DNA of 64,000 bases, from contig SKKH01000080.1 in assembly GCA_007121555.1 (NCBI GenBank), forward strand, positions 30,460-94,459, given 5' to 3'. Source of the DNA: Gemmatimonadota bacterium (GTDB taxonomy: Bacteria; Gemmatimonadota; Gemmatimonadetes; Longimicrobiales; Gaopeijiaceae). Of this stretch, positions 23,325 to 24,205 are shown in pieces. The position numbers and the translations under genes were made by a program. The stretch's first letter is position 1, and every line of letters starts with the position of its first letter. The notes under the pieces are model-generated. The model did not search any database, was not told the DNA's origin, and saw only the letters and a list, made by a program, of their open reading frames with translations.

Positions 23325-23675
23325 ATGGAATACATCGACTTCGCCCAGATCAGCATCTATCTTTTCTGGTTCTTCTTCGCCGGGCTGATCATCTACCTGA
23401 GACGCGAGGACAAACGGGAGGGGTATCCCCTGGAGTCGGATCGAAAAGGTGTGACGGTGCAGGGCTGGCCCGCCGTTCCTCCGGCAAAGCCTTCCCGTCC
23501 CCGGCACCCTGCCCTCGTGGGCGCGGACGGCCGGGAGCTGGAGCGGGCCCTCGGTGACGAGCCCCCGGCTTCGGCTCGGGCCTCCAGCGCACCAGCCGCT
23601 CCTCCGGCGTCCGAGGCTCCTCCGGCCGCTCCCGACGAGCCCACCGCTTCTTCTGACGACGAGAATGACCGATGA
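23325..23675 (+). CDS. puhA: Reaction-centre H subunit, membrane part (split puhA)
   Basis: This encodes the N-terminal portion of the reaction-centre H protein. Residues 1-30 (MEYIDFAQISIYLFWFFFAG and on) form the single membrane helix followed by LRREDKREGYPLE, the canonical start of the cytoplasmic side. Residues 50-116 are rich in Pro, Ala, Ser and Asp and end at a true stop at 23675. The remaining PRC-barrel domain is encoded by the next gene, whose ATG overlaps this stop by four bases. So H here is two polypeptides rather than one of about 250 residues. I recall a similar two-piece H subunit from the G. phototrophica photosystem structure. Confidence 0.9.
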   Translation: MEYIDFAQISIYLFWFFFAGLIIYLRREDKREGYPLESDRKGVTVQGWPAVPPAKPSRPRHPALVGADGRELERALGDEPPASARASSAPAAPPASEAPPAAPDEPTASSDDENDR

Positions 23676-24205
23676 CTCTGCCTGGAAAGCCACACGGAAA
23701 ACACCCCGGCGCCGCCCTCACGCCCACCGGGAACCCCATGAAGGACGGGATGGGACCGGCTGCATGGAACCCGGACCGGGCGGATCGTCCCGACTACACC
23801 CACGACGGACGTCCCCGGATGCAGCCCATGAGCAAGCTGACCGGATGGTCCATCGAGGCCCGTGACCCTGATCCCCACGGGATGACGGTCATCGGAGCCG
23901 ACGGCGTGGCCGCCGGTACGGTGGTGGACGTCTGGGTGGACCTGGCGGAACCGCAGCTCCGATATCTCCAGGTCGAGCTCCCTGTCGAGGACCAGACCGA
24001 CATACTTCTCCCCATGGGCTATTGCCGGATTCGCAGGCGAGATCGTACCGTGCGGGTGAAGGCCATCAAGAGTCATCACTTCCCGGACGTACCCCGGACC
24101 CGAGCCCCCGACAAGATCACCTTGTTGGAGGAAGACAAGATCGTGGCCTACTACGCGGGCGGATACATGTACGCAGATCCGTCCCGGTCCGAGCCCCTCT
24201 TCTAG
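23672..24205 (+). CDS. Reaction-centre H subunit, cytoplasmic PRC-barrel part
   Basis: This encodes the C-terminal portion of the H protein, 177 residues, with no membrane helix. The PRC-barrel signature runs from GMTVIGADGVAAGTVVDVWV near residue 70 through LRYLQVELP to ILLPMGYCRIRRRDRTVRV near residue 110. ITLLEEDKIVAYYAGGYMYA near the end is the typical H C-terminus. The N-terminal 50 residues are Pro/Gly/Asp-rich and include GPAAWNPDRADRPDYTHDGR, matching the region just before the barrel in normal H. It begins in an ATGA overlap with the membrane part, implying coupled translation and equal amounts. Confidence 0.9.
   Translation: MTLPGKPHGKHPGAALTPTGNPMKDGMGPAAWNPDRADRPDYTHDGRPRMQPMSKLTGWSIEARDPDPHGMTVIGADGVAAGTVVDVWVDLAEPQLRYLQVELPVEDQTDILLPMGYCRIRRRDRTVRVKAIKSHHFPDVPRTRAPDKITLLEEDKIVAYYAGGYMYADPSRSEPLF

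What the first reader, a model, noticed from the sequence alone, without database searches (positions are those of the whole stretch)
23325..24205. Reaction-centre H subunit split into two overlapping genes
The membrane helix (116 aa) and the PRC-barrel (177 aa) are separate open frames joined by an ATGA overlap, with a Pro/Ala-rich tail ending the first. The break falls in the flexible linker and both halves keep all conserved motifs, so this looks like a real fission. It matches what I recall of two H polypeptides in the G. phototrophica photosystem and may mark the lineage. How two separate chains reach one complex in equal amounts is open.
Basis: partly seen in the sequence, partly recalled or inferred. 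Interest (0 to 1): 0.7.

Follow-up and report, generated by a model that had tools for sequence, protein, structure and literature searches.

The report
Photosystem H subunit encoded as halves
In this phototrophic Gemmatimonadota bacterium the H subunit of the photosynthetic reaction centre is encoded by two overlapping genes instead of one, a split already known from Gemmatimonas and seen in all 43 sampled genomes of the phylum that carry the gene, and the two chains are predicted to come together again in one complex.

Summary
puhA is split into 23325-23675 (Ht, 116 aa: membrane helix, Pro/Ala-rich tail) and 23672-24205 (Hc, 177 aa: PRC-barrel), joined by ATGA. The kind is known: the Gemmatimonas phototrophica and G. 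groenlandica photosystems hold separate RC-Ht and RC-Hc chains, and Hc's predicted fold matches 7o0w_H2 best. Added here: (1) 43 of 43 PRCH-positive Gemmatimonadota genomes (395 searched, three families) are split; 31 of 31 over-cut-off Pseudomonadota genomes are not. Five genomes that looked intact are split by one in-frame stop. (2) Hc starts at -1, +2 or +6 nt from the Ht stop in 43 of 45 loci; 44 of 45 have a Shine-Dalgarno-like site before it. The window alone lacks one and likely relies on ATGA re-initiation. (3) Ht is long-tailed (79-116 aa) in the window's family. (4) The window's genome shows one pufA and no pufA2, so the split does not need the double ring. One origin is favoured, but a second split in the window's family is not rejected (p-AU 0.20).

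The parts
23325..23675 (+). puhA1 / RC-Ht: membrane helix (about residues 6-29), conserved cytoplasmic stretch to residue 56, then a 60-residue Pro/Ala-rich tail
23493..23672 (+). Ht tail (residues 57-116) with the R-H-P-A-L motif at residues 60-64; predicted unstructured
   Evidence: motif nearly invariant at H61, P62, A63 in 30 chosen rows; low pLDDT; faster protein change than the core
23666..23668 (+). TGA stop in the Hc frame just upstream of the Hc start; rules out an Hc start further upstream and leaves 4 nt for any frameshift
23672..23675 (+). ATGA: start of Hc overlapping the stop of Ht, the likely re-initiation site; no Shine-Dalgarno-like site above background in front of it
23672..24205 (+). 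puhA2 / RC-Hc: linker end, conserved P-G-A-x-L-x-P-T-G stretch and PRC-barrel
   Evidence: predicted model pLDDT 90.5 matches 7o0w_H2 first, TM 0.94
24219..25004 (+). puhB-like gene (bPH_2) that follows Hc in the operon
   Evidence: a frame follows Hc in 45 of 45 loci
31952..32149 (-). single pufA (LH1 alpha); no pufA2 found beside it
32173..32325 (-). pufB (LH1 beta)

Best explanation
The reaction-centre H gene is split here into two overlapping genes, Ht (membrane helix) and Hc (PRC-barrel), whose products are predicted to sit together in the reaction centre as RC-Ht and RC-Hc do in Gemmatimonas, with Hc likely made by ribosomes that finish Ht and restart at the ATGA overlap. Shown: the two frames, their homology, and the split in every sampled genome of the phylum that has the gene. 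Inferred: one fission in an ancestor of the phototrophic Gemmatimonadota, later drift of the joint between a few tight layouts, and coupled translation as the source of roughly matched amounts. Ht would anchor in the membrane beside L and M, and Hc would dock on the cytoplasmic face without a covalent linker. The long tail of Ht in this family is predicted to be a disordered, lengthened remnant of the linker.
For: Homology to solved Ht and Hc chains; fold of Hc, best match 7o0w_H2 with TM 0.94; split in 43 of 43 PRCH-positive genomes against 0 of 31 in Pseudomonadota (38 of 38 re-read loci unbroken). Tight joint in 43 of 45 loci and SD-like site in 44 of 45, inside Ht unless the joint is spaced. 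In three congeners the stop stays a stop although it changes between TAG and TAA. dN below dS in both halves in the eight pairs compared. No X-XXY-YYZ heptamer in the last 90 nt of the window's Ht and only 4 nt open to both frames.
Against: No expression or protein data from this organism. The window is the only one of 45 loci without an SD-like site before Hc (-3.0 kcal/mol; random mean -3.0), so Hc could be made poorly. Tight joints are not special to the split: Hc to puhB lies within -1 to +5 nt in 38 of 45. About 25% of random positions reach the SD cut-off used. The one-origin clade is 96/87 in one tree, was not recovered by the free search of a larger one, and holds a fused row, P0058.
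Confidence: 0.82

Rival explanations
1. The split arose twice: once in the families f4 and f5 (which include the Gemmatimonas-type genomes) and separately in the window's family, whose H would come from another gammaproteobacterial-type donor.
For: Window's Hc scores higher with intact Allochromatium H (179 bits) than with G. phototrophica Hc (157 bits). A clade of the window's family with six intact H rows is not rejected, p-AU 0.20. The larger tree's free search left the families apart, and the PufL/PufM tree is unresolved. Tails and motifs differ between the families.
Against: All split rows plus P0058 form one clade, 96/87. In the larger tree the constrained single clade has a log-likelihood 8.1 higher than the free tree. 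None of the 43 genomes is intact. The cut lies in the same linker in all.
Confidence: 0.17
2. Hc is started independently of Ht by its own ribosome recruitment, so the two chains are not matched by coupling but by assembly and decay of the excess.
For: An SD-like site precedes Hc in 44 of 45 loci, and two loci (G244, G170) have spaced joints.
Against: The window has no SD-like site above background before Hc and its start overlaps the Ht stop.
Confidence: 0.2
3. A single H protein is still made, by programmed frameshift here and by stop readthrough in the five in-frame genomes.
For: In five genomes the two parts share a frame apart from one stop.
Against: In the window the Hc frame is closed by TGA at 23666-23668, leaving 4 nt, and no slippery heptamer lies in the last 90 nt of Ht. 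The in-frame stops vary (TAG, TAA, TAG, TGA, TGA). Related photosystems contain two separate chains.
Confidence: 0.02
4. A sequencing or assembly error broke an intact gene.
For: The source is a fragmented assembly (293 contigs) and reads were not seen.
Against: The same split stands in another assembly (P0122 with P0001) and in all 43 genomes with the gene.
Confidence: 0.01

Closest known systems
RC-Ht / RC-Hc of the Gemmatimonas phototrophica and G. groenlandica photosystems (PDB 7o0u-7o0x, 9h19, 9h22; puhA1/puhA2 in PMC12817894)
   Same: Same cut of the H subunit into a membrane helix and a cytoplasmic PRC-barrel protein, same order, neighbouring genes; Hc fold TM 0.94 to 7o0w_H2.
   Different: Ht is 116 aa here against 60-67 aa in the solved chains; ATGA overlap instead of TGATG; no SD-like site before Hc; one pufA and no pufA2 found.
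Intact reaction-centre H (PuhA) of purple bacteria, e.g. Allochromatium vinosum 8wdu_H
   Same: Same two domains in the same order; Hc residues 6-176 align with residues 90-258 of the intact chain.
   Different: One unbroken frame in 31 of 31 over-cut-off Pseudomonadota genomes and 38 of 38 re-read loci; two frames here.
Double-ring RC-dLH photosystem of Gemmatimonas
   Same: Shares the split H.
   Different: Needs a second alpha chain (pufA2, per PMC12817894), which was not found in the window's genome.

Membership tests
Split reaction-centre H (RC-Ht / RC-Hc) of Gemmatimonadota | Separate gene for the N-terminal membrane part of PRCH | tested here: met
   PF03967 positions 5-61 in Ht; best PDB matches are Ht chains
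Split reaction-centre H (RC-Ht / RC-Hc) of Gemmatimonadota | Separate gene for the C-terminal part of PRCH plus PRC-barrel, with the RC-Hc fold | tested here: met
   PF03967 positions 86-133 and PF05239; fold match 7o0w_H2 first
Split reaction-centre H (RC-Ht / RC-Hc) of Gemmatimonadota | Adjacent genes, Ht before Hc, before a puhB-like gene | tested here: met
Split reaction-centre H (RC-Ht / RC-Hc) of Gemmatimonadota | Common descent with the Gemmatimonas split H | tested here: inconclusive
   One clade with P0058, 96/87; constrained tree better by 8.1 log units; a second origin not rejected, p-AU 0.20
Split reaction-centre H (RC-Ht / RC-Hc) of Gemmatimonadota | Both chains present in the purified photosystem | not testable with these tools
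   no protein data from this organism
Double-ring RC-dLH photosystem | Second alpha gene pufA2 in the puf operon | tested here: not met
   Two PF00556 matches in the window's genome (one beta, one alpha) against three in G039; no frame of 35 aa or more between pufA and pufL on their strand. A very divergent or unassembled copy elsewhere cannot be excluded.
Double-ring RC-dLH photosystem | Extra subunits RC-S and RC-U | not tested
Intact PuhA of purple bacteria | Membrane helix and PRC-barrel in one chain | tested here: not met

The most novel reading that the evidence does not exclude
The fission of H is a founding event of phototrophy in Gemmatimonadota: it came before the double ring, has not reverted in any sampled genome, and let the two halves evolve apart. 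In the window's family the freed membrane half has grown a long flexible arm with a conserved H-P-A-L grip that ties Hc or the LH1 ring to the reaction centre, doing the clamping job that RC-U does in Gemmatimonas.
Probability: 0.2. Interest if true: 0.55.

Novelty: new member of a known kind. Interest (0 to 1): 0.36.

Why it matters
H was one chain in every over-cut-off purple-bacterial genome examined here, so a lineage that runs on two half-subunits shows that the covalent linker is dispensable. The survey shows the split in every sampled Gemmatimonadota genome that has the gene, beyond the two genera for which I found it described, and in genomes where no second alpha gene of the double ring was found. 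That bears on the published view that split puhA and pufA2 both arose before the genera parted. The different joints (ATGA, TGATG, in-frame stop, spaced) are natural variants for testing how two chains of one complex are balanced.

Tried and rejected
Intact relatives: one search listed five Gemmatimonadota genomes with a single full-length PRCH match. Re-reading showed one stop codon, one codon and an ATG between the halves in all five, so they are split in frame. Rejected as intact.

P0058, a 254-aa fused protein that falls inside the window's family: one 1,184-base contig; after K-H-P-A-L its linker does not resemble the tails of its nearest Ht relatives (P0152, P0153; about 90% identical before it). 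Either an indel or a real re-fusion; not resolved. A split clade that leaves it out is rejected (p-AU 0.003).

Programmed frameshift, readthrough and sequencing error: see rivals.

Tight joint as a sign special to the split: weakened by the Hc-to-puhB control, 38 of 45 within -1 to +5 nt.

PufL plus PufM tree for one or two origins: few outgroup rows, unresolved. Split in other phyla: the only phyla sampled by genome were Gemmatimonadota and Pseudomonadota; for Myxococcota I saw only passages of PMC10576062, in whose main text the word 'split' does not occur. RC-S and RC-U were not tested.

Full report
What is there. The window carries a photosynthesis gene cluster. Between a PucC/LhaA-type gene (21840-23303) and a puhB-like gene (24219-25004) lie two frames on the + strand: 23325-23675 (116 aa) and 23672-24205 (177 aa), sharing ATGA. 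The first holds positions 5-61 of Pfam PRCH, the second positions 86-133 plus a PRC-barrel.

What it is. The best solved matches of the first frame are the chains named Ht of 9h22 and 9h19 (Gemmatimonas groenlandica by the title of 9h19) and the H1 chain of the G. phototrophica photosystem 7o0u. The second matches intact purple-bacterial H from residue 90 on, and the RC-Hc chains. Its predicted structure (pLDDT 90.5) finds 7o0w_H2, the G. phototrophica Hc, first (TM 0.94). The split is in print: PMC12817894 (passages; [quoted passage not shown] PMC10214105 (passages) describes the split H of G. phototrophica. The original structure paper (10.1126/sciadv.abk3139) is not held; I know it through citations and recall. 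In the listings of searches I recognised no other paper on the split; most of those papers I did not open, and subscription journals are mostly absent from the library.

How wide it is. PF03967 was sought in 395 Gemmatimonadota genomes drawn from a larger set: 43 have it, in 3 families and 14 genera. Thirty-eight gave two matches and five gave one. The five turned out to be split by one in-frame stop followed by one codon and an ATG (TAG, TAA, TAG, TGA, TGA). So 43 of 43 are split. Three of the five are congeners (g92), whose stop is TAG, TAA and TAG. In 398 Pseudomonadota genomes 32 gave a match: 31 over the cut-off, each one unbroken match, and one weak partial hit below the cut-off (G562, 20 bits). 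Nine of 101 genomes of the family of G395 (the Woeseiaceae genome) also gave one match each (G395 is in both sets). Thirty-eight loci of these two searches were re-read, and 38 hold both parts in one frame.

The joint. In 45 split loci (the 43 genomes plus the named MAG loci L034 and L036) Hc starts at -1 (ATGA; 5), +2 (TGATG; 33) or +6 (in-frame stop; 5) from the Ht stop codon; two (G244, G170) are spaced, at +53 (an ATG; a GTG at +17 is possible) and +22. A site that pairs with the anti-Shine-Dalgarno string at -5 kcal/mol or better stands 4-18 nt before Hc in 44 of 45; about 25% of random positions in Hc reach that value. The exception is the window (-3.0; random mean -3.0). Its Hc start should therefore depend on ribosomes arriving from Ht; this step is inferred. 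As a control, Hc-to-puhB offsets lie within -1 to +5 in 38 of 45, so tight joints are the habit of this operon. A frameshift product is implausible: the Hc frame has TGA at 23666-23668, and the window shows no slippery heptamer in the last 90 nt of Ht (ten were seen further upstream in other loci).

The tail. Ht is 79-116 aa in the nine loci grouped with the window's family (L034 and L036 were placed there by me and agree in the tree), and 65-69 aa in 35 of the other 36; G244 has 94. The window's is the longest of the 45. In 30 Ht rows that I chose from the hits, the linker region has a nearly invariant H-P-A in an R/K-H-P-A-L motif, followed by a variable Pro/Ala-rich stretch (P0227 and P0240 among them look like partial intact H). 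Of 107 Ht-only proteins among the 120, 58 carry the motif; of 111 among the 117 new ones, none does. AlphaFold gives one helix (6-29) and low confidence over the tail. Window against G093: Ht core dN 0.10 with saturated dS, tail dN 0.64 and dS 1.21, Hc dN 0.22 and dS 1.68.

Origin. A tree of 71 rows joins all 45 split rows, with P0058, in one clade (96/87) among intact H of gammaproteobacterial type. A larger tree (96 rows; 11 split and 2 intact rows dropped before the build, most of them near-copies) did not recover that clade in its free search, but the tree constrained to it was 8.1 log units better. A separate split in the window's family is not rejected (p-AU 0.20), and PufL/PufM does not decide. 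One fission is the simpler reading, not a proven one.

Relation to the double ring. The window shows one pufB (32173-32325, minus) and one pufA (31952-32149, minus), no further frame between pufA and pufL, and its genome has no other PF00556 match at E 0.01. G100, G101 and G344 of the same family and G319 of family f4 also show two matches; G039 (whose Ht is that of G. phototrophica over the aligned stretch) shows three; G151 and G093 show four. Two of 43 genomes gave no match at all, so absence in a single draft genome is weak evidence; the window's gap-free puf stretch is the best case. The split is therefore likely not tied to the double ring.

Close. The finding is correct and belongs to a known kind. 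The additions are the survey with its Pseudomonadota control, the in-frame-stop joints, the long-tailed Ht of this family, the missing SD-like site in the window, and the occurrence without pufA2.

Noticed in passing
window 29805-29808: pufM and pufC (minus strand) also overlap by 4 bases, so this kind of overlap is used elsewhere in the same cluster.
   Followed up: partly
G000:C215:8242-9165 (L062): The window's genome encodes a RuBisCO large-chain match (open frame 491 aa, E 3e-135), as reported for soda-lake Gemmatimonadota in PMC6748926 (passages). Its form was not typed.
   Followed up: partly
P0058 (1,184-base contig): A fused 254-aa H that falls inside the window's family; either an indel or a real re-fusion of the two halves.
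   Followed up: partly
G151 and G093 (family f1): Four PF00556 matches each on two contigs, so these two relatives likely have a second antenna pair apart from the puf operon.
   Followed up: no
L115, L121: puhA lies in stop-to-stop frames of about 750-850 aa in these two Pseudomonadota loci; a fusion or just a long open frame.
   Followed up: no
L056 / L087 (G288): H and PufM/PufL of this genome of the window's family sit on very long branches.
   Followed up: no
G398 (behind locus L040): Two separate pufL/pufM sets in one genome, the second only 57% identical to the query in PufM.
   Followed up: no
P0232: A partial Ht labelled Escherichia coli on a 234-base contig, most likely a contaminated record.
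   Followed up: no
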